64,000 nt of DNA from Nocardia sp. NBC_00565 (GTDB taxonomy: Bacteria; Actinomycetota; Actinomycetes; Mycobacteriales; Mycobacteriaceae), in the NCBI RefSeq assembly GCF_036345915.1, contig NZ_CP107785.1, positions 5,828,001 to 5,892,000 of the forward strand. The letters are read 5' to 3'. The notes under the pieces were generated by a model, which ran no database searches, was not told where the DNA came from, and worked only from the letters and a program-made list of their open reading frames with translations. Of the stretch, positions 27,699 to 36,634 are shown piece after piece. The position numbers were made by a program, and so were the translations under genes. Positions within the stretch are counted from its first letter, which is position 1; every line of letters begins with the position of its first letter.

Positions 27699-27902
27699 GT
27701 GGACATCGGATGGGGCCGGGCTCACCGAGATCGAACGAACCGTTACCGCCTAATCGGAAGCGCTTGCTGCACAAGCTATTTCGCCGCAATCTTTCGACCT
27801 CGCTCATTCCGTGGACTGGCGAACCTTGCCGAGGCACACTTTGTGTACAACGACGTTCGGCGCCGGTGGCCGAACGCGGGGGCGAGGGCAGGGACAGTAT
27901 GA
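27699..27902 (+). CDS. Possible small leader ORF ahead of the SCO2524-like gene
   Basis: A 67-codon frame from GTG 27699 with a good ribosome-binding site (AGGAGAGG, 6-base spacing). It ends in TGA that overlaps the ATG of the next gene (ATGA at 27899-27902), which would couple translation. The peptide (MDIGWGRAHRDR, NLAEAHFVYNDVRRRWPN) is Arg-rich and matches no family I know. Its third-position GC is lower than that of the neighbours. It may be a translated leader rather than a functional protein. Confidence 0.4.
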   Translation: MDIGWGRAHRDRTNRYRLIGSACCTSYFAAIFRPRSFRGLANLAEAHFVYNDVRRRWPNAGARAGTV

Positions 27903-29773
27903 GAATTCGGCCGCGGCAGCAGCTGCTCGACCTGTGGCGAGCCGTGCTCGCCTACTCCTATCGGGACGAGAAGTGGATCTGGGGCGGGCGCGACGGCGCC
28001 AACTCGATCAGCGACGCCGAACAGCTGCTGTGTCTGCTGTATCCGGCGACGGAGATCGATGCTTTCGCGCTGCACCAGCCCGACGAGATGGCCGCCGACG
28101 CGAAGACAGCCCTCGCCCTGTTCGGGGAGGAGACCCGTATCGGTCGGGTCCTGGTGGATCTGCTCGACGACTACCTCGATCGCTACGCGGGCGCCGACGG
28201 CCGGCCGATCTTCGCCGCAGGCAGCTACCTGCATTCCGTCGACGAAAAACCGCCCAGCGAAGCACAATTGGCGCTGGAAGTCGTCGACTCCTATTCGATG
28301 TCGCTGAGCCTGTGCATCGCATCGATGCGCTTCCTGCGCGGCTTCGACCGATTCGTCCGCGGTGAGGTGCGGATGGAGGCCAGGAAGCTGCGTGAGCGGA
28401 TCCCCCTCGTGATCGACAAAGTCAGCACTCGGCTCACCGCCGCGATGGCGGGCCTGGTGCGCAGCTTCGTGATTCACACCCCGGAGTCGAAAATGGCTAC
28501 GGGGCAGGAGATCCTGAACATGATCAATCAGAGCCGCGCACCGGCCGACGATGCCCTCGCGCGGCTGTCGGCTCGGCTGGAGCAGCTGCGGGTCAGGGCC
28601 GCCAGCGAGGTCAGGCTCGGTCAGCCTGCCGAGAGCGACATCGCCGACGACAAGCGGATCGACATCGCCGACGACAAGCGGCTGTTCGAATGCGGGTGGG
28701 GCTGGGGCATCGTCCACACCGCCGAGCCGATCGACTTCGTACCCGGCCACGTGGGCACTGCGACCGGCCTCGCGGAGCCCCGCCCCTACCTGTACTTCAC
28801 CGCCGTGGCCCTGGACGGCATCATCGACCTGGCGTCTCAGCGCATCCGGGAACTGGACCTGCTCACCGACGAGCAGCGCAAGCTCGCCGACGCGTTGGCA
28901 CTGCGTTTCGAACTCACCCGCAACTACTGGTCGACCGTGGCCCGCTTCGGCAGCGGCCGTTGGCCATTGGAGGACATCCCCTGGCGCACCTCCGACGGCG
29001 AGGAGTCGGACTACTTCAGCCTCGCGGTCAGCGCCATGCTCATTCAGGACCTGGTCTACCGCGACAGCACCGAGGATCTGGCACGCACGGTGGCGGTGTT
29101 CGATCAGCTGGCCCGCCGCGGCCGGATCACCAGTCGGCTCACCTCCGGCGACCCGGCCGCAACCCTGCACTATCCCGGCGTGCGGATGCGCTTGGCCGGT
29201 AGCGAGCACATCGGCGGTGGGCCCCAATTGGAGTGGTACGTACCGGATTTCGTGACGATGATGCTCAAGCGCTGTCTGCAGGCCGCACGCCTGCGCACCG
29301 AGGTCGACACCCGCGACCAGCTGATGGCGCTGGCCGAATCGGCCATGGACCACATCGACAGTCGCATGCTGCGAGACAGCCCCGCCCGGGGACTGTGGGA
29401 CGACCCCGGCTGGCTGTTCGACACCGCGAAACCCATCGCCGAAGGCCCATCCTGGTTCGTCACCGAGCGGGTGATGGAATGCCTGGTAATCGCGCACGAC
29501 ACCTTCAGCAGACCACCGCTGGCACCGAAGTCCATGGTCTCCCGCGCGGTGGATCTACTCAGCGAGGCCGAACACCTGCTCAACCAGGAGGAGCTCGAGG
29601 TCGAAGGCGATGATGTGTCCCCGAGGCAAGTGGCGGTCAACCGGATTCGGCAATCACTCGACCGCGCCCGCCGTGTGCTGAACGAGCGCCCCGGAACCGC
29701 CTACGGCCTGGCCACTCAGGCACTGACCCAGCTCGACGAACTGGCGTACGCGCGCCATGACGCGACGCGGTAA
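27899..29773 (+). CDS. SCO2524-like protein, cassette A
   Basis: A 624-residue protein of unknown function resembling the Streptomyces SCO2524 family (recognised from memory). No catalytic motif is visible. Conserved blocks shared with the second copy at 34781 are MRIRPRQQ, GANSISDAEQLLCLLYPATE, EDIPWRTSDGEESDYFSLAV and ATQALTQLDELAYARHDATR. It is soluble, largely helical, without a signal or membrane segment. ATG 27899 is supported by the same start in the paralogue. It is first of four tightly packed genes (9-, 0- and 1-base gaps) that surely form one transcript. Confidence 0.8.
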   Translation: MRIRPRQQLLDLWRAVLAYSYRDEKWIWGGRDGANSISDAEQLLCLLYPATEIDAFALHQPDEMAADAKTALALFGEETRIGRVLVDLLDDYLDRYAGADGRPIFAAGSYLHSVDEKPPSEAQLALEVVDSYSMSLSLCIASMRFLRGFDRFVRGEVRMEARKLRERIPLVIDKVSTRLTAAMAGLVRSFVIHTPESKMATGQEILNMINQSRAPADDALARLSARLEQLRVRAASEVRLGQPAESDIADDKRIDIADDKRLFECGWGWGIVHTAEPIDFVPGHVGTATGLAEPRPYLYFTAVALDGIIDLASQRIRELDLLTDEQRKLADALALRFELTRNYWSTVARFGSGRWPLEDIPWRTSDGEESDYFSLAVSAMLIQDLVYRDSTEDLARTVAVFDQLARRGRITSRLTSGDPAATLHYPGVRMRLAGSEHIGGGPQLEWYVPDFVTMMLKRCLQAARLRTEVDTRDQLMALAESAMDHIDSRMLRDSPARGLWDDPGWLFDTAKPIAEGPSWFVTERVMECLVIAHDTFSRPPLAPKSMVSRAVDLLSEAEHLLNQEELEVEGDDVSPRQVAVNRIRQSLDRARRVLNERPGTAYGLATQALTQLDELAYARHDATR

Positions 29774-29782
29774 GGCGGCATT

Positions 29783-30697
29783 GTGCTGGTGTTCTCCACC
29801 TCCGACAAGGGCGGCACCGGACGCTCGGTGACCAGCTGCAACATCGCGTACCGGCTGTGTCTTTCCGGGCACAATGTCGCCTATGTCGATTTCGATTTCG
29901 GCTCGCCTACCGCTGGCGCACTATTCGAAATCAGCGCTATGGAGCGCGGTACGTCGCTCGGCGGCACGCATTCCTATCTGCTCGGCGAGCAGGGCACCGT
30001 CGACCGTGTCGACATCGGCACGGCCACAGACCGGACCGAACTCAAGCGCGTCGGTCCCCGCTCCGGCCGACTGGTCCTGTTTCCCGGCGACGAGGGGGGC
30101 GCCGAATTCCTCACCTGTGACGACGAAATGGTGCAGCGCTGCGTGGAGTTACTGGCGACGCTGGAGCAGGAATTCCCAGTGGTGGTTGTCGATCTCAGCG
30201 CGGGTCGGTCGATCGCGCTCGAAATCACCCTGAAGGCAACGGCTCTGCCGCAATTGCGGCGGCACACCGCGCGCTGGCTGATCTTCCACCGCTGGACCCG
30301 CCAGCATATTCTGGCCGCCTCCGGATTGGTGTACGGCCAGAACGGGCTGCTGCAGAGCGGTACCTTGTACGGCCACGACCAAGACGAACTGCTCGGCTCG
30401 CTGCGCTATGTGCGCACGGCCGTACCCGACACCAACTCCCACCTCAGCGCCCAGCGTGCCGCCCAAGCGGCGTGGCTGCAGGAGCAGGACGCCGCGCTGC
30501 GGCGCCTTGCCACCGCCAACCGTCTCGGCACAACCGCGGTCCTCGGAGCCACCCCCATAGAGCCGGTGCTTCAGTGCCGCGAACAGCTCATTCTCGACAG
30601 CGACGTCAATGCCCACATCGCCAACAACGAGACCGCGCAGGCATACATCGAACTCGCCCGCAGCCTGGTCGACAACGCAACCTGGGAGAGACTCTAG
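29783..30697 (+). CDS. SCO2523-like variant P-loop (ParA/MinD-type) protein
   Basis: A 304-residue protein with a ParA/MinD-like start: VFSTSDKGGTGRSVTSCNIA carries a deviant Walker A with KGGTGRS, where active members have KGGxGKS/T. VAYVDFDFGSPTAG stands where the Walker-A-prime/switch segment lies, and FPVVVVDLSAGRS resembles Walker B. The replaced lysine casts doubt on normal ATP hydrolysis, though the deviant N-terminal Lys is kept. The start is GTG 29783 after AAGGCGG. It is second gene of the cassette. Confidence 0.8.
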   Translation: MLVFSTSDKGGTGRSVTSCNIAYRLCLSGHNVAYVDFDFGSPTAGALFEISAMERGTSLGGTHSYLLGEQGTVDRVDIGTATDRTELKRVGPRSGRLVLFPGDEGGAEFLTCDDEMVQRCVELLATLEQEFPVVVVDLSAGRSIALEITLKATALPQLRRHTARWLIFHRWTRQHILAASGLVYGQNGLLQSGTLYGHDQDELLGSLRYVRTAVPDTNSHLSAQRAAQAAWLQEQDAALRRLATANRLGTTAVLGATPIEPVLQCREQLILDSDVNAHIANNETAQAYIELARSLVDNATWERL

Positions 30698-31705
30698 ATG
30701 CGTGGAACGCGAGGATACAGCGAGGCGACCGATCGGCCGCAGATCGCGCGGGTTCCATTGTCGCACTTGTCGATCGAGGTCGGGCACTTCTATCCCAACG
30801 ACATCACCGGCGACATCGACCGGGTGAAGGCGGAGTTCCGCCGCATCGTCCCGCTGGTGTCGGCATTCGTCGAATCGGCGCGGGTACAGTTCGGCCCCGA
30901 AGCACGAGTCAGCACCTGCTACCTGATCGACGACTACTTCCAGCCCGACACAGACCCCGCCGAAATCCTCGGAAAGCTGCTGGCGGCTGCCGACGAAACC
31001 GGTTTGACCATCGACTATCTGGCGCGCGAGTCCGGCTGCTGGCAGACCTCACCGTTCGCCGACGGTGTGCCGTCGGGCGAGCCGATTCCGGTGGCGGAGA
31101 TGGTGGCCGCACGCATCATCGCCGAGCCCGCGCCGCCGGACACCGGCCGCCGCCCACCCACGGCCCAATCGGGCTGGTTGTGCAACGGCCGCCGATCCTC
31201 GGAGCACGAATCTGCGCAGGCCATGCGCGGACGGCCCTACGAGCCGCCGGAGGAGTTCGGTCGCCGCGAACACTCCATCTTCCTCGATGTGCAACTGTGG
31301 CGCACGCGGATCGACGAGGGGGTCACCGAGACCAGATGGTCGTGCTCGTTCCTGGCCGCCGTCTGGCACCTGATGCGACTGGGGATGCTGCGCTATCACG
31401 GTGAGCCCGTGGTGGATCCGCAACCCTGGCGCGGCGAACCGTGGCCGCGTCGCTGGCACGAGGTACCGCCCGTGGTGCAGGTCAATCCGGCTGCCCAGCC
31501 GTTCGCGGCCTACCGGACGCTGTCGATGCTGCCCAAGCTCTACATCGGCATAGAGCACTCGGTCCGACTGGTGCTCGATCATCTGGATCTGGACGACGAC
31601 GTGGTCAACCAGATCATCGACTGCGGGGCCAACGACCAAGTACCTGTGACGGTGTCACGCAAAATCAGCGACCGGTTGTCCCACCTGCTCCTCGACGGGT
31701 CTTGA
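30698..31705 (+). CDS. SCO2522-like protein
   Basis: A 335-residue protein of unknown function, third in the cassette. Its ATG directly follows the stop of the P-loop gene. Recognisable blocks are ARVPLSHLSIEVGHFYPNDI near the N terminus, VSTCYLIDDYFQPDTDPAEI and the C-terminal AAYRTLSMLPKLYIGIEHSV. It is soluble, with no enzyme motif seen. The family name is from memory of Streptomyces SCO2522; the position and the 2523 neighbour support it. Confidence 0.75.
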   Translation: MRGTRGYSEATDRPQIARVPLSHLSIEVGHFYPNDITGDIDRVKAEFRRIVPLVSAFVESARVQFGPEARVSTCYLIDDYFQPDTDPAEILGKLLAAADETGLTIDYLARESGCWQTSPFADGVPSGEPIPVAEMVAARIIAEPAPPDTGRRPPTAQSGWLCNGRRSSEHESAQAMRGRPYEPPEEFGRREHSIFLDVQLWRTRIDEGVTETRWSCSFLAAVWHLMRLGMLRYHGEPVVDPQPWRGEPWPRRWHEVPPVVQVNPAAQPFAAYRTLSMLPKLYIGIEHSVRLVLDHLDLDDDVVNQIIDCGANDQVPVTVSRKISDRLSHLLLDGS

Positions 31706-31706
31706 G

Positions 31707-32693
31707 ATGGCCGTCCCCTTAGTGATGCTCGGCGAGGTTCGTACCTGCCTGCTACCATCGGCGGCCGCACTCACCCGAGCAGAGGCCGGTGAGTTGCTGG
31801 CGCTGATGCCCGGCTGCGCGGTGCGCTGGCGGGAGCGGCCGGGCAAACTCGCCATTTCGCCCACCGTCGCGGTCGGCGTCGACTGCAACCTGCCGCTGGG
31901 CGAGCAGGTTGCGCATGTCGTCGGCACCGTGGCGACCAGCATCGTGCTGGCGGGTGGGCGTGTGCTGCAATCCTCGGCCAGCACCCGGGTGGTGCGGGCC
32001 TCCGAGAAGCGGCGGCAGACGTGGTCGCACTACGTCAGCCAGAAGGGCGTGACGGAGGTCATCAGCCGTATCCCCGAAAGAGCGACGGCCGGAATCGCTT
32101 TGGCCGAGGGGTACCTCACCGGCCCGGTCGGCGGCGACATCTTGGACCTGGCCTCGATCAGTGAGCGCCTGCTGTCGCGAATCCGCGCCGATGTCGGGCT
32201 GGACCATGATCCACCCGTGCGGGCGCGTACCACCCGGCTGCGCTGGACCGCGCGTATCGGCGGCACTGCCGGGCCCACAGCGGAGCTGCATCTCGACGAC
32301 GACAGTGTCCGCTCGATCCGGCTGATCGTGCGCGCGGAGTCAGATCTCGATGCGGCGCAACGGTTCTGCGAGGATCTGGCCGCGCACGACTGGCTGCTGA
32401 CCGTACTTGCCGACGCCCTCGACGAGGCGGACCGATTCCCTTCGCACAGCCGTGAGCGGATGAACACCCTTGCGCCGGCGCTCGAACACCTGACGGGATT
32501 GTGGATGCCGGGCGGACACACTCCCGCCGAGTTGCGTGCGCTATGGAAGGAGTTGCAGACCGAGCCAGGCTTCTCTCGCCAGTGGACGACGCTGGTCGCC
32601 AGGCTGCGGGACAATATCGCGGTGGCAACGCTGGCGGCCTTGCGGCACAAGGTTTTCGACTCCGATTCGCAGTCGGAACCAGTTTCGCACTAG
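31707..32693 (+). CDS. SCO2521-like protein
   Basis: A 328-residue protein, last in the cassette, starting one base after the stop of the SCO2522-like gene. Characteristic blocks are VMLGEVRTCLLPSAAALTRA, VGVDCNLPLGEQVAHVVGTV, GGRVLQSSASTRVVR and WSHYVSQKGVTEVI. The C-terminal segment QWTTLVARLRDNIAVATLAAL is the part preserved in the collapsed second cassette. No known activity. Confidence 0.75.
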   Translation: MAVPLVMLGEVRTCLLPSAAALTRAEAGELLALMPGCAVRWRERPGKLAISPTVAVGVDCNLPLGEQVAHVVGTVATSIVLAGGRVLQSSASTRVVRASEKRRQTWSHYVSQKGVTEVISRIPERATAGIALAEGYLTGPVGGDILDLASISERLLSRIRADVGLDHDPPVRARTTRLRWTARIGGTAGPTAELHLDDDSVRSIRLIVRAESDLDAAQRFCEDLAAHDWLLTVLADALDEADRFPSHSRERMNTLAPALEHLTGLWMPGGHTPAELRALWKELQTEPGFSRQWTTLVARLRDNIAVATLAALRHKVFDSDSQSEPVSH

Positions 32694-32813
32694 CCGCGGT
32701 AAGCGCACCGACACCGATGAGAAATCGCTTCGACGTGGGTGGTGAACATTTCCGGCGGCGACTGTGCGGGGTGCGCCGCCGATCTACATCCGTAGCGGAC
32801 TGTGCTGCGCGCC

Positions 32814-33338
32814 TTACGACCCGTTTCGAGCCGACGCAACGAACGAGGGAATCTCGTTCAGGATCGCGAGTTCAGTCTCCGGGAACAAGCGGTATTCGAG
32901 TACATCGCGTGGCTCACCCTCTCCGAAGTACCGATTATCTTGTTCGACGAGTTCGAACCCGGCCTGCTTGAACAGGTTGCTCGCCGCATGATTGTCCGGT
33001 CGCACGGTCAGGTACATCACTTTGGTGCCCAGTTCTCCGCACGCCCGCAGGGCGCGGTCCAATAGGCCCCGGCCATAGCCGCACCCCTGATACTGTTTGG
33101 CCACGGCAAAGGTGAACAGCAGGGCGCGGCCGGACTTCTCCAGCGTCAGCGCGTACCCGATCACCGCGCCGCCCAATTCGGCGACCAGCCACTCGGATCC
33201 GTGCAGCTCGAACAGCTGCCGCAGCATCAGGTACAGGTACGGCTCATCGAAGACATCGGCCTCGATGGCCGCGAGATCCTCGAGGTCGGCGAAGCAGGCC
33301 CGGCGATATTCCGGCTGCGGCGCCTCAGCGATGTCCAT
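32814..33338 (-). CDS. GNAT-family N-acetyltransferase
   Basis: A 174-residue acetyltransferase (ATG 33338, with AGGGAG close upstream; further in-frame ATGs at 33371 and 33407). The acetyl-CoA loop is FAVAKQYQGCGYGRGLLDRA, followed by VMYLTVRPDNHAASNLFKQAGF, as in the RimI-like branch. The substrate is unknown. It lies between the two SCO252x cassettes, convergent with the first. Confidence 0.85.
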   Translation of the reverse strand: MDIAEAPQPEYRRACFADLEDLAAIEADVFDEPYLYLMLRQLFELHGSEWLVAELGGAVIGYALTLEKSGRALLFTFAVAKQYQGCGYGRGLLDRALRACGELGTKVMYLTVRPDNHAASNLFKQAGFELVEQDNRYFGEGEPRDVLEYRLFPETELAILNEIPSFVASARNGS

Positions 33339-33724
33339 GTGCTCCCTAATGCCAGAGTATAAGCCGTCCATTTCCAGCCTAGAACTTTCTTTCGTCAACC
33401 GCGTCATTGTAGAGGTCCTGGAATGGTCCTGTGATACGACGGGGCGTTGGGCACTGAAAATACCAACCAGTCGGGCTATCGGGCGAAGTGTCCGGGCAAG
33501 AAGTCAACGCCCGAGTCGCCGGACACGACAACACTTATTTCAGCGCCGACGAGCCGCGCGATAACTTGTCGCGACAGATCGTATACCCCACCCAGACCAT
33601 CCCCGATCCGAAACGACCTGCCCTTGATCAAGGGCCGTCGCCGACCCCGGCTGGTAGCCCAATCACATTGCTATGGTGGATATCACGCGTCCAGAATGCG
33701 TGGGCGATCCGGGGGAGATACGGG
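33339..33724. other. Intergenic region between GNAT and channel-like genes
   Basis: Divergent promoter region of 386 bases. No gene is supported. An open frame continues upstream of the channel-like gene to 33488, but the family-like sequence and a ribosome-binding site (GGGGAGA at about 33713) point to ATG 33725. No operator could be identified. Confidence 0.5.
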
Positions 33725-34582
33725 ATGACCGAATACGAGGGACAGCTGGGGCTCTCCGACTTCGTCCGGTCCATGACCACACGCATCGACCGGCACGGCG
33801 AGGCGTACGCCGCGGAGGTCACGGAATTTCGCGAGGAACCGCATACCGGTCAGGATGATTCGGCCGAACGGGAGCTACTGGATTCCTTCAATATCCATGT
33901 GGAGAACGTGGTCGCCCACTACAACCCGCCGGAGACGCGACGGCGCGGAGACAGCCTGGTCTTCGCCCATATCTACGTGGCTGTGGGCCGCAGCGCCGAC
34001 GAAGACGAGGGTGTCCGCAGGACCTTGCTGACCGCGCTGCTGGCCGCGGAGGTCGAATTGCGCGGGCCGCTGCGGCTCAGCCCGACCCAGAACATGCACT
34101 TGGCCGGGATCTACGAACGGATCGGCACCGATCTCACGGCGCACGGGCTGCCCGCGCACGCGGTACTCTCGCTGCGCCGCGCCGCAAGCCTGCACGGCCA
34201 GAACGAGGATGTCGACGCCCAGGACCGCTGCGGGTTGGCCATGGCGCGGGCCCGGCGGCAGGCGCGCTCTCCCGCTTGGCGCCGGATACCCGGTTGGGCC
34301 GCAGATCTGCTCTGCGGCTACGGCTATCGCCCGTTCCGGCTGCTGCCATGGATCGCGCTGCTCCTGGTGACGTTCACCATCGGGCTACGGGCGAGCGCCG
34401 AGGTGTCGATCACGACCGCGTTTCACATCTGCCTGGTCAACTTCCTGAACCCGATCGGTCTCGGCGACCTCGACCGCGTGCACCAGATCGGCCGCGGCCT
34501 GCTGATAATCGAATCCTACGTGGGGATCATCTCCACCTCGGTCTTCTTTGCGCTGCTGGTGCGGCGGTGGTTCCGGCTGTGA
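33725..34582 (+). CDS. Membrane protein with two-helix ion-channel-like C terminus
   Basis: A 285-residue protein. Residues 1 to about 195 are soluble and helical, possibly TPR-like (MHLAGIYERIGTDLTAHGLP, AVLSLRRAASLHGQ). The end has two membrane helices (LLPWIALLLVTFTIGLRAS and LLIIESYVGIISTSVFFALL) flanking a pore-like segment FHICLVNFLNPIGLGDLDRV. The layout resembles 2TM potassium-channel modules, but the filter TVGYGD is replaced by NPIGLGD, so ion selectivity is doubtful. It sits between the two cassettes and is convergent with the second. Confidence 0.7.
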   Translation: MTEYEGQLGLSDFVRSMTTRIDRHGEAYAAEVTEFREEPHTGQDDSAERELLDSFNIHVENVVAHYNPPETRRRGDSLVFAHIYVAVGRSADEDEGVRRTLLTALLAAEVELRGPLRLSPTQNMHLAGIYERIGTDLTAHGLPAHAVLSLRRAASLHGQNEDVDAQDRCGLAMARARRQARSPAWRRIPGWAADLLCGYGYRPFRLLPWIALLLVTFTIGLRASAEVSITTAFHICLVNFLNPIGLGDLDRVHQIGRGLLIIESYVGIISTSVFFALLVRRWFRL

Positions 34583-34587
34583 GGCGG

Positions 34588-34776
34588 CTACCAGTCCGTG
34601 CTGCTGATCTTGGTCTGGCGCAATGCCGCCAGGGTCGCGACGGTCATCCGATCACGTAGCTGACCGACCCGGGCGGTCCACTGCGCGGCGCCCGCTATGC
34701 ACACCCGATAGGCGATATTGCAACTGGTCACCGAGCGGCCGGTGCCGCCCTTGTCCGAGGTAACGAAGACGATCAT
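34588..34776 (-). pseudogene. Collapsed 2523::2521 fusion remnant, cassette B
   Basis: A 62-codon open frame. Residues 1-29 are the start of a SCO2523-like P-loop protein (IVFVTSDKGGTGRSVTSCNI). Residues 30-62 are the end of a SCO2521-like protein (AAQWTARVGQLRDRMTVATL), aligning with the C terminus of the gene at 31707. Compared with cassette A, roughly 2.7 kb (the rest of 2523, all of 2522, most of 2521) is missing, and the junction is in frame. It starts 4 bases after the SCO2524-like stop, so the original gene order is kept. Probably non-functional, but it is still open. Confidence 0.8.
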
Positions 34777-34780
34777 CCGA

Positions 34781-36634
34781 TCACAACACCCTCGTTGCGT
34801 CGCGGCGGGCATGTGTCAGCTTGTTCAATTCGACTAACGCCACCGACGCGAGACTGAACGCGGTGCCGGGCTGCTCGTCCACCAGCTTCCTGGCACGGGT
34901 CAGGTACTCCTCGACGTCGGCGAGCATACGCCGGTTGTCAGAGATGTCCTCGACACTGACGCCCAGCATGCCCTGATTGAACAAATGATCTGCCTCGTTG
35001 AGCAATTCGACCGTCCGCACGACCATCGCGGATGCCCGCAACGGCTCCTCCCGGAAGGTACGGTCGGCGGCGACCAGACATTCGATTATCCGCTCGGTCA
35101 GGTACCAGGACGGCTCGATCTCGGGATCCGCGCCGTTACCGCCGAATACGCGCGTCGGATCGTCCCAGAGCCCGGCAGCGGGACCGACCCGCAGCATTCG
35201 TCGATCGAGATGCTCCATCGACAGTTCGGCCAATTGCATCAGCCGGTCGCGGGCCGCGACATTGCCGGACAGCCGGGCCGCCTGCAGGGTGCGCTCGAGC
35301 AATACCGCGGCGAAATCCGATACCTGCCACTCCAATCGCGGTCCCCGGTCCACCTCCTCGGTACCGACCAGCATGAGCCGCACGCCGGGGGTGTGCAGAC
35401 GCACCGCCGGGTCGTCCCTGGCGGGTCTGCGGGTGATCCGGCCGCGCCGCGCCAGCTCGTCGAAAATGGCTACGGCCCTGGTCAAGTCGTCGTCGGAGGC
35501 AGTCCGGCTGACCAGATCCTGAATCAGCACCGCGGAGACGATGAGACTGTAGTAGTCCGACTCGTCGCCGTCGGAGGTGCGCCAGGGAATATCCTCCAGC
35601 GGCCATGCGGCGGGTCCGAAGCGGGCGATGGTCGACCAATAGCGCTGGGTCAGGTCCCAGCGGATTCGCAATGCCTCGGCCAGGCGATACTGCTGTTCGC
35701 TGAGCAGGTCCAGTTCGCGGGTGCGTTGCGATATGAGGTCATTGATGCCGTCGAGCGCGACGACGGTGAAGTACAGATACGGTCGGGGATCGGCGATTCC
35801 GGGCTGTTCCGCGATGGCGGCGTCGACGAATCCAACGGCGGCGGCATCCTTGGCCACACCCCAGGTCCAGCCGCATTCGAAGAGCAACCCGTCGTCGTCG
35901 AGCTGAGTATCCGGGGTCTGGCCGAGCGTGATGTCGTTGCGCAGCCGGGCCCGGACGCGTTCGAGGGCGTCGCACACCTCGCGCAGCACCGTCTCCTCGC
36001 GCCGGTCGCCCTGATTGAGTATGCTCAAAATCACCTGTCCCGCAGGCGATTTCGGTGCCACCGTATTGACGACGAAACTGCGCACCAGACCCGTCATCGC
36101 GGCGGTTAGCCGGTCGCTGAGCTTGGCGGCGAGGGTATCGATCCGGTCGACGGGTTCGCGATGCGCCTTGCTGCGCAGCGAACCCTTGTACCCCCTCAGG
36201 AAGCGCATTCCGGCGAGGCATACGGTCAGCGACATCGAGTATGCGGCGACGACCTCGATATCGCGCTGTTCGGCGGTGGGTTTCCGGTGATCCGAGGATC
36301 GCAAGTAGCTGCCCGCAGCGAAGTTCGGCCGGCCTTCCGCGCCCGTGTTCCGCTCGATGTACTGCTCCAGCAAGCACACTACGAAGCCGCCGATCTGCAT
36401 CGGACCCCTGAGCGGCTCTAGGGCCGCAATGACGTCGTCCTCCATGCGATCCGGGACATCCAGCGCGAAGATATCGATCTCGGTGGCCGGATACAGCAGG
36501 CATAGAATCTGCTCGGAATCGCTGATGGAGTTGGCGCCCCCTTTCCCGCCCCAGCGCCAGTCTCGACCATCCCAGCATGTGGTCATCATCGCGCGCCACA
36601 CATCCAGAATCTGTTGCCTAGGTCGGATTCTCAC
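34781..36634 (-). CDS. SCO2524-like protein, cassette B
   Basis: An intact paralogue of the gene at 27899, 617 residues from GTG 36634. It shares MRIRPRQQ, GANSISDSEQILCLLYPATE, EDIPWRTSDGDESDYYSLIV and VALVELNKLTHARRDATR. No frameshift or internal stop is present, although its partner genes are lost. It has no domain of known function and no membrane segment. Retention of an open frame suggests it is still used, possibly with the partner proteins of cassette A (inference). Confidence 0.8.
   Translation of the reverse strand: MRIRPRQQILDVWRAMMTTCWDGRDWRWGGKGGANSISDSEQILCLLYPATEIDIFALDVPDRMEDDVIAALEPLRGPMQIGGFVVCLLEQYIERNTGAEGRPNFAAGSYLRSSDHRKPTAEQRDIEVVAAYSMSLTVCLAGMRFLRGYKGSLRSKAHREPVDRIDTLAAKLSDRLTAAMTGLVRSFVVNTVAPKSPAGQVILSILNQGDRREETVLREVCDALERVRARLRNDITLGQTPDTQLDDDGLLFECGWTWGVAKDAAAVGFVDAAIAEQPGIADPRPYLYFTVVALDGINDLISQRTRELDLLSEQQYRLAEALRIRWDLTQRYWSTIARFGPAAWPLEDIPWRTSDGDESDYYSLIVSAVLIQDLVSRTASDDDLTRAVAIFDELARRGRITRRPARDDPAVRLHTPGVRLMLVGTEEVDRGPRLEWQVSDFAAVLLERTLQAARLSGNVAARDRLMQLAELSMEHLDRRMLRVGPAAGLWDDPTRVFGGNGADPEIEPSWYLTERIIECLVAADRTFREEPLRASAMVVRTVELLNEADHLFNQGMLGVSVEDISDNRRMLADVEEYLTRARKLVDEQPGTAFSLASVALVELNKLTHARRDATRVL

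What the first reader, a model, noticed from the sequence alone, without database searches (positions are those of the whole stretch)
27899..36634. Two inverted SCO2521-2524-like cassettes, one collapsed
Cassette A (27899-32693, plus strand) has four tightly packed genes: an unknown 624-residue protein, a deviant P-loop ParA/MinD-like protein and two more proteins of unknown function. A second copy on the minus strand keeps an intact SCO2524-like gene, and next to it only a 62-codon scar of the others. A GNAT protein and a channel-like membrane protein lie between. Loss of three partners with retention of the first gene suggests the SCO2524-like protein has a role of its own or exchanges partners with cassette A. 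No function for this four-gene set is known to me.
Basis: partly seen in the sequence, partly recalled or inferred. Interest (0 to 1): 0.85.

Follow-up and report, generated by a model that had tools for sequence, protein, structure and literature searches.

The report
Two merging copies of pore-linked module
A Nocardia-like chromosome carries two related copies of an uncharacterised gene module that belongs with an acetyltransferase and a pore-like membrane protein, and the copies have shrunk to one shared set plus a spare first gene; a relative of the pore protein is fused to a cell-death-type protease elsewhere in the same genome, a first hint of what the module may control.

Summary
Cassette A (27899-32693) is a four-gene SCO2524-2523-2522-2521 operon. 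The minus-strand copy keeps an intact 617-residue SCO2524 protein, then a 62-codon in-frame fusion of the 2523 start to the 2521 end.

The reading changes. The GNAT and the channel-like protein (CHAN) between the cassettes are module members: CHAN occurs in 102 of 107 congeneric genomes with 2523 and in 0 of 41 without. A and B are not a local duplication; they fall in different clades and use one exchange site, and one congener has both in this layout with B complete. The window's CHAN is B-type and its GNAT A-type, so two cassettes have collapsed into one shared set. Of 11 genomes with two full 2524 genes, 9 keep one CHAN at the cassettes. In 148 genomes no other full 2524 lacks a 2523 beside it (one 2523, G119, is split), so a separate role for 2524 gains no support.

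New leads: a CHAN relative in this genome is fused to an EACC1-type caspase; 2524 models as an (alpha/alpha)6 barrel, 2522 as a class I aminoacyl-tRNA synthetase core without HIGH/KMSKS. Best mechanism, inferred and unproven (about 0.25): the proteins control a pore that stops the cell.

The parts
27899..29773 (+). 2524A: SCO2524-family protein, 624 aa
   Evidence: NF040567 752 bits; 53% to 2524B over the length
29783..30697 (+). 2523A: variant P-loop (ParA/MinD/Mrp-like) protein, 304 aa, KGGTGRS loop
   Evidence: NF040564 468 bits; K9-S15 invariant in 22 rows
30698..31705 (+). 2522A: SCO2522-family protein, 335 aa; model resembles a class I aminoacyl-tRNA synthetase core
31707..32693 (+). 2521A: SCO2521-family protein, 328 aa, fold not predicted here
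   Evidence: NF040565 385 bits
32814..33407 (-). GNAT (RimI-like acetyltransferase), member of the module, closest to GNATs of A cassettes
   Evidence: Acetyltransf_1 2.1e-17; TIGR01575 75.7 bits, below its 86.4 cut-off; 75-79% to four GNATs (L034, L036, L037, L212), next 63% (L208), the rest 59% or less; no supported clade in the GNAT tree
33725..34582 (+). CHAN: 285 aa, helical N-terminal part and two C-terminal hydrophobic segments; belongs to cassette B
   Evidence: 17-row set at 99 SH-like support, the other 16 rows from loci with B cassettes; hydrophobic windows about 203-225 and 258-279; 24-row alignment
34588..34776 (-). deletion scar: 62-codon in-frame fusion of the 2523B start to the 2521B end
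34781..36634 (-). 2524B: intact SCO2524-family protein, 617 aa
   Evidence: NF040567 789 bits; codon-position differences like those between intact relatives; model pLDDT 91.5

Best explanation
History (by comparison): two old, diverged versions of one module met, in opposite orientation, at an exchange site between an MFS transporter gene and a TIGR02569 gene. Redundancy then pruned them: cassette A lost its CHAN, cassette B lost its GNAT and, by one in-frame deletion, 2523-2521. What remains is one complete shared module (2524A, 2523A, 2522A, 2521A, an A-like GNAT, CHAN-B) plus a second 2524. Mechanism (inferred): CHAN is the membrane output, a small two-helix pore held shut by its helical N-terminal part; 2523 is a nucleotide-dependent switch; 2524, an (alpha/alpha)6 barrel, is the binding platform that meets CHAN; 2522 (synthetase-like core), 2521 and the acetyltransferase (an SCO2525-type methyltransferase in relatives) make, modify or read an aminoacyl-type ligand that sets the switch. 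When triggered, the pore opens and growth stops, as proposed for programmed-arrest systems of filamentous actinomycetes. 2524B is a spare that may still serve CHAN-B.
For: History: G063 (L033) has the same layout with B complete: MFS gene, A operon, two GNATs, one CHAN, full B operon, TIGR02569 gene. A and B 2524 sit in different supported clades, and the window's CHAN in the B set. Nine of 22 cassettes in two-copy genomes lack their own CHAN against 5 of 96 in the other 2523-positive genomes (Fisher 6e-5); one cassette with GNAT only and the other with CHAN only occurs in G000, G087 and G094. Membership: CHAN in 102 of 107 genomes with 2523, 0 of 41 without (Fisher 2e-31); of 70 cassette 3' ends in named Nocardia loci 58 have convergent CHAN, 59 convergent GNAT, 56 both, against 9 (GNAT) and 7 (CHAN) of 189 upstream windows. 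Mechanism: a CHAN homologue in the same genome (39% over 279 aa) is the C-terminal part of an EACC1-type caspase (NF047832 E 6e-66), the position in which PMC7159879 (section 33 read) proposes effectors; model folds of 2522 and 2524; RimI-like GNAT; NNMT-like methyltransferase in 7 of 9 non-Nocardia loci (Pfam run on 2 of them).
Against: No experiment links CHAN to the cassette proteins and no pore activity is shown; its Ion_trans_2 scores (14.0 and 17.1 bits) are below the 22.5 cut-off. All 3 Streptomyces-like loci seen lack CHAN and have a membrane protein with a DUF6879 match in its place. SCO2525 is described as necessary for normal growth, which suits metabolism or development as well as arrest (PMC11472566 passage). 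PADLOC gives only weak partial matches, for 2523 and GNAT. No plasmid or phage match for 2524B. Sequence profiles give no support for 2522 as a synthetase relative, and Foldseek gave no E below 0.001 for either model. Five 2523-positive genomes lack CHAN. The GNAT beside the A operon of G063 is only 49% identical to the window's, and the GNAT tree has no supported clade for it.
Confidence: 0.5

Rival explanations
1. Neutral decay: B is a redundant second copy caught part-way through loss. A chance deletion removed three genes; 2524B is intact only because too little time has passed, and the in-frame join is a one-in-three accident.
For: Decayed sets in other genomes keep differing subsets: 2522+2521 with 39 residues of 2524, 2523 with a 2524 tail, 2523+2522+2521, a 2521 tail only. 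The scar halves are about as similar to relatives as intact genes are, so the deletion may be recent. Extra 2522 genes at the orphan locus drift faster (89-93% identity) than the main copies of the same species group (98-99%).
Against: 2524B shows no sign of relaxed constraint by codon position (pos2/pos3 0.36-0.51 to B relatives; 0.21-0.56 among intact B genes). Its end branch, 0.33, is above the tree median of 0.13 but within the range of its clade; with no close relative both tests are weak.
Confidence: 0.4
2. Biosynthesis: the module makes a small aminoacyl conjugate, on the plan of mycothiol (MshC, a synthetase-like ligase, then the acetyltransferase MshD; pathway recalled), and CHAN moves or senses the product.
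Against: No HIGH or KMSKS motif in 2522; no ligase or export gene recurs in the loci as far as I looked; it does not explain the caspase fusion of CHAN.
Confidence: 0.25
3. Second 2524 as a cognate partner: 2524B was kept because CHAN-B needs its own 2524, while 2523-2521 of A serve both.
For: 2524B and CHAN-B are the two B genes that survive; in G036 and G112 the opposite set (2522, 2521, GNAT) survives without 2524, 2523 and CHAN.
Against: Seen once in 148 genomes. In G040 and G017 one CHAN stands for two full cassettes.
Confidence: 0.25

Closest known systems
SCO2521-2524 NCBIfam set (NF040564-NF040567) with SCO2525 (NF040568)
   Same: All four cassette A proteins and 2524B pass the curated cut-offs; same gene order as in the Streptomyces-like loci.
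   Different: The family names give no function; here GNAT and CHAN are added as members, no SCO2525-type gene was found in the 71 named Nocardia loci, and copy B is cut down.
EACC1-caspase two-gene conflict systems (PMC7159879, section 33 read)
   Same: The CHAN domain stands at the C-terminal end of an EACC1-type caspase in this genome and P0242 matches that protein over its full length at 53%.
   Different: No caspase among the cassette genes; the ORF before the caspase-CHAN gene has no NCBIfam match.
Class I aminoacyl-tRNA synthetase core proteins without anticodon domain (MshC type, GluQRS)
   Different: No canonical HIGH or KMSKS in the sequence; no profile similarity to CysRS.
(alpha/alpha)6-barrel AGE-type epimerases and isomerases
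   Different: 6-12% identity in the rows; catalytic residues not mapped; the last 80 or so residues lie outside the matches.
ParA/MinD/Mrp P-loop ATPases
   Same: 2523 matches CbiA (1.3e-5) and MipZ (1.1e-4) just over their cut-offs and 2ph1 by profile (2e-5).
   Different: The second Walker A lysine is arginine in all 22 aligned members.

Membership tests
SCO2524 family (NF040567) | score over the curated cut-off, full length | tested here: met
   752 and 789 bits against 300; residues 1-623 and 1-614
SCO2521-2524 four-gene set (cassette A) | all four genes side by side on one strand | tested here: met
SCO2521-2524 four-gene set (copy B) | all four genes side by side on one strand | tested here: not met
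   only 2524B and a 62-codon scar; NF040565 and NF040564 have one match each in the genome
SCO2525-containing operon | SCO2525-family methyltransferase in the genome | tested here: inconclusive
   NF040568 had no match in this genome, but rang in no control genome either
Class I aminoacyl-tRNA synthetase | catalytic core fold | tested here: met
Class I aminoacyl-tRNA synthetase | HIGH and KMSKS motifs (recalled) | tested here: not met
   by reading the window sequence and the 64-row consensus: E-V-G-H only, no KMSKS; equivalent positions were not mapped
Class I aminoacyl-tRNA synthetase | profile similarity to a member | tested here: not met
   hhalign against 9 CysRS cores: probability 9.9%, 39 columns in an unrelated register; the score, 29.4, was above 20 shuffled controls (up to 24.8) but in the wrong place
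AGE-type (alpha/alpha)6 enzymes | barrel fold | tested here: met
AGE-type (alpha/alpha)6 enzymes | catalytic residues in place | not tested
   no residue mapping was available
Two-TM ion channel (Ion_trans_2) | Pfam gathering score | tested here: not met
   14.0 bits (window) and 17.1 bits (L131) against 22.5; two other CHANs had no match
EACC1-caspase conflict system | caspase in the locus | tested here: not met
   none among the cassette genes; the caspase-CHAN gene lies about 5.4 Mb away along the contig
Canonical ParA/MinD ATPase | Walker A with the second lysine | tested here: not met
   KGGTGRS, R14 invariant in 22 rows

The most novel reading that the evidence does not exclude
SCO2521-2524 with GNAT and CHAN (SCO2525 in relatives) is an undescribed regulated-arrest or conflict system of filamentous actinomycetes: a synthetase-like protein, an acetyltransferase and a methyltransferase write or read an aminoacyl-type signal, a variant P-loop protein and an (alpha/alpha)6 barrel decide, and a two-helix pore, borrowed also by caspase systems, executes. 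Cassettes of different type share or swap outputs, so the window shows two systems fusing into one.
Probability: 0.25. Interest if true: 0.85.

Novelty: new variant of a known kind. Interest (0 to 1): 0.6.

Why it matters
Four families without a function, found in 107 to 111 of 148 congeneric genomes, gain two constant partners, model folds for two members and a testable output. If CHAN is a pore, the module would be a growth-arrest or cell-death switch shared by Nocardia, Pseudonocardiaceae and Catenulispora, with a variant in Streptomyces where S. coelicolor can be tested directly. The two-copy genomes are natural experiments that show which parts can be shared between versions.

Tried and rejected
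Local duplication of A and B: rejected by the 2524 tree (FastTree, SH-like support only). GNAT and CHAN as bystanders: rejected. Scar as recombination with cassette A: the halves align better with two B cassettes than with window A, though not with the B cassette of G063. In-frame TAG listed for 2523 of five congeners: checked in two of them (L056, L089), it is the ordinary end of the gene. Defence annotation by PADLOC: nothing for 2524A, 2524B, 2522, 2521 and CHAN; weak partial matches for 2523 (9e-6) and GNAT (1e-5). Solved structures by sequence: no useful hit for 2524, 2522, 2521 or CHAN; the weak ones had E 0.029 or more. Profile comparison of 2522 with CysRS: no support; an ArgRS set was sought, but only 2 of 31 genomes passed the limit and it was dropped. 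An early idea, in my note, that E-V-G-H of 2522 is the HIGH motif was dropped: the spacing after the first strand looks too short and no residue map was at hand. The VIA lists do not exclude other folds. Literature: two searches with the locus tags found the same 3 papers; a search for synthetase-GNAT neighbourhoods found none; a search for caspase-channel papers listed nothing on the point among the 8 of 13 shown. ORF before the caspase-CHAN gene as EACC1: no NCBIfam match. Left out of the count of 11 genomes with two full 2524 genes: second matches that are fragments or contig splits (G039, G053, G066, G117, G123).
Full report
What is there. The window lies in a single-contig genome of 9,711,624 bases. 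The genus is Nocardia by inference: contigs of its congeners in the unnamed set have the lengths and gene orders of named Nocardia records (for example G117:C246 and NZ_BAGN01000184.1, both 57,385 bases). Cassette A is four packed genes that pass the NCBIfam cut-offs for SCO2524, SCO2523, SCO2522 and SCO2521. Copy B on the other strand has an intact SCO2524 gene and a 62-codon open frame. That frame starts as 2523 starts, a few bases after the 2524 stop, and ends as 2521 ends.

A six-gene unit. The GNAT and the channel-like protein (CHAN) recur, mostly convergent with the operon. Of 70 cassette 3' ends with enough downstream sequence in the named Nocardia loci, 58 have a convergent CHAN, 59 a convergent GNAT and 56 both; of 189 upstream control windows 9 had a GNAT and 7 a CHAN, several of these being cassette partners in other layouts. 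Across 148 congeneric genomes CHAN is found in 102 of 107 with 2523 and in none of 41 without; for G022 the match is a fragment. Three CHAN matches lie off the cassettes (G000, G098, G130). Outside Nocardia 9 loci were seen: the 5 Pseudonocardiales loci and the Catenulispora locus have CHAN; the 3 Streptomyces-like loci have another membrane protein after 2521, with a DUF6879 match in the one I ran. An SCO2525-type methyltransferase is in 7 of 9, a GNAT in 5 of 9, at least one of the two in each.

How the window came about. In a FastTree of 76 SCO2524 proteins, 2524A and 2524B lie in different supported clades within Nocardia. Both types occur at the site between an MFS transporter gene and a TIGR02569 gene: A-clade alone in L041 and L049, B alone in L053, L057, L059 and others. 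G063 (L033) has A and B in the window's own arrangement with B complete, two GNATs and one CHAN between the operons. The window's CHAN falls in a 17-row set at 99 SH-like support whose other 16 rows are CHANs of B cassettes, that of G063 among them. The window's GNAT is 75-79% identical to four GNATs (three beside A-clade operons, the fourth, L212, beside a 2521 79% identical to the window's), 63% to one orphan GNAT and at most 59% to the rest; the GNAT tree gives it no supported place, and the GNAT next to the A operon of G063 is only 49% identical. So A has lost its CHAN, and B its GNAT and, by one deletion, 2523 to 2521.

Is sharing general? Eleven of 148 genomes have two full-length 2524 genes. 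All 11 keep a CHAN at a cassette, 9 of them just one; 10 of 11 keep a GNAT in the fetched flanks (none seen for G142). In G000, G087 and G094 one cassette has only the GNAT and the other only CHAN. Cassettes lack their own CHAN in 9 of 22 cases there, against 5 of 96 in the other 2523-positive genomes (Fisher 6e-5; genomes counted as independent, which they are not fully). CHAN and 2524 types are also mixed in single cassettes: L066 and L070 pair a third-clade 2524 with an A-like CHAN, L042 and L044 an A-clade 2524 with a CHAN among B-like rows. Both facts favour sharing and exchange.

Does 2524 act alone? Other remnants give it no special status. They include 2522+2521 with 39 residues of 2524 (G041), 2523 with a 2524 tail (G053), 2523 with 78 residues of 2524 (G117), 2523+2522+2521 (G080), 2524+2523 (second set of G142), and 2522+2521+GNAT (G036 and G112, which have no 2524, 2523 or CHAN; G048 as an extra set). 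A syntenic orphan locus in six genomes shows stepwise loss: 2522+2521+GNAT in G112 and G048, 2521 broken in G066, 2521 not found in G008, G059 and G041. In G048, G066, G008 and G059 its GNAT is 97-99% identical while its 2522 is 89-93%; the main-cassette 2522 of three of them is 98-99%. Those four genomes lack CHAN, and the main cassettes seen with flanks (L065, L068) have no GNAT beside them, so the orphan GNAT may serve the main cassette. The window's 2524B shows no relaxed constraint by codon position, but without a close relative that test is weak.

A clue to output. The second CHAN in this genome (L218) is the C-terminal part of a 538-residue frame whose N-terminal part is an EACC1-associated caspase (NF047832 222 bits, cut-off 140; Pfam C14 1.9e-10). 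A second protein, P0242, matches it at 53% over the full length. Kaur and colleagues (PMC7159879, section 33 read in full, passages elsewhere) propose that domains in that position are effectors deployed by auto-proteolysis. Two other CHAN relatives (L219, L220) have a different N-terminal part without a Pfam match, which to my eye resembles a helix-turn-helix. This is the only evidence that ties CHAN to arrest or conflict, and it concerns paralogues. Of PMC8195603 I saw passages only.

Literature. Three papers in the library name these loci. [quoted passage not shown] PMC3017869 and PMC6344877 mention SCO2525. Gehring 2004 was not held.

Verdict. Observation confirmed. The history part I hold at about 0.85, the pore-switch mechanism at about 0.25.

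Noticed in passing
G000:C1 about 500444-502060 (L218:8445-10061), outside the window: A 538-residue frame fusing an EACC1-type caspase to a CHAN domain, in the same genome as the window.
   Followed up: partly
L219:7876-9273 (+) and L220:8667-10073 (-): CHAN domains with a different, HTH-looking N-terminal part and no Pfam match.
   Followed up: partly
L209, L210, L215, L253, L254, L255; L208 elsewhere: Orphan 2522(+2521)+GNAT sets without 2524, 2523 or CHAN beside them; one syntenic locus in six genomes shows stepwise loss of 2521.
   Followed up: yes
L207 (Catenulispora): Two strongly diverged four-gene cassettes side by side in opposite orientation, each with GNAT and CHAN hits beside it.
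   Followed up: no
L128, L129, L130 (Streptomyces-like): A membrane protein with a DUF6879 match (tested in L128) follows 2521 where other genera have CHAN.
   Followed up: no
L217:7587-8499 (G119): The 2523 of an otherwise complete B cassette is split over two frames, by a frameshift or a sequencing error.
   Followed up: no
L087:7970-9353 (G128): A gap of about 1.4 kb between 2523 and 2522 splits the operon, and CHAN is truncated; a weak GNAT hit lies in the same gap in L138.
   Followed up: no
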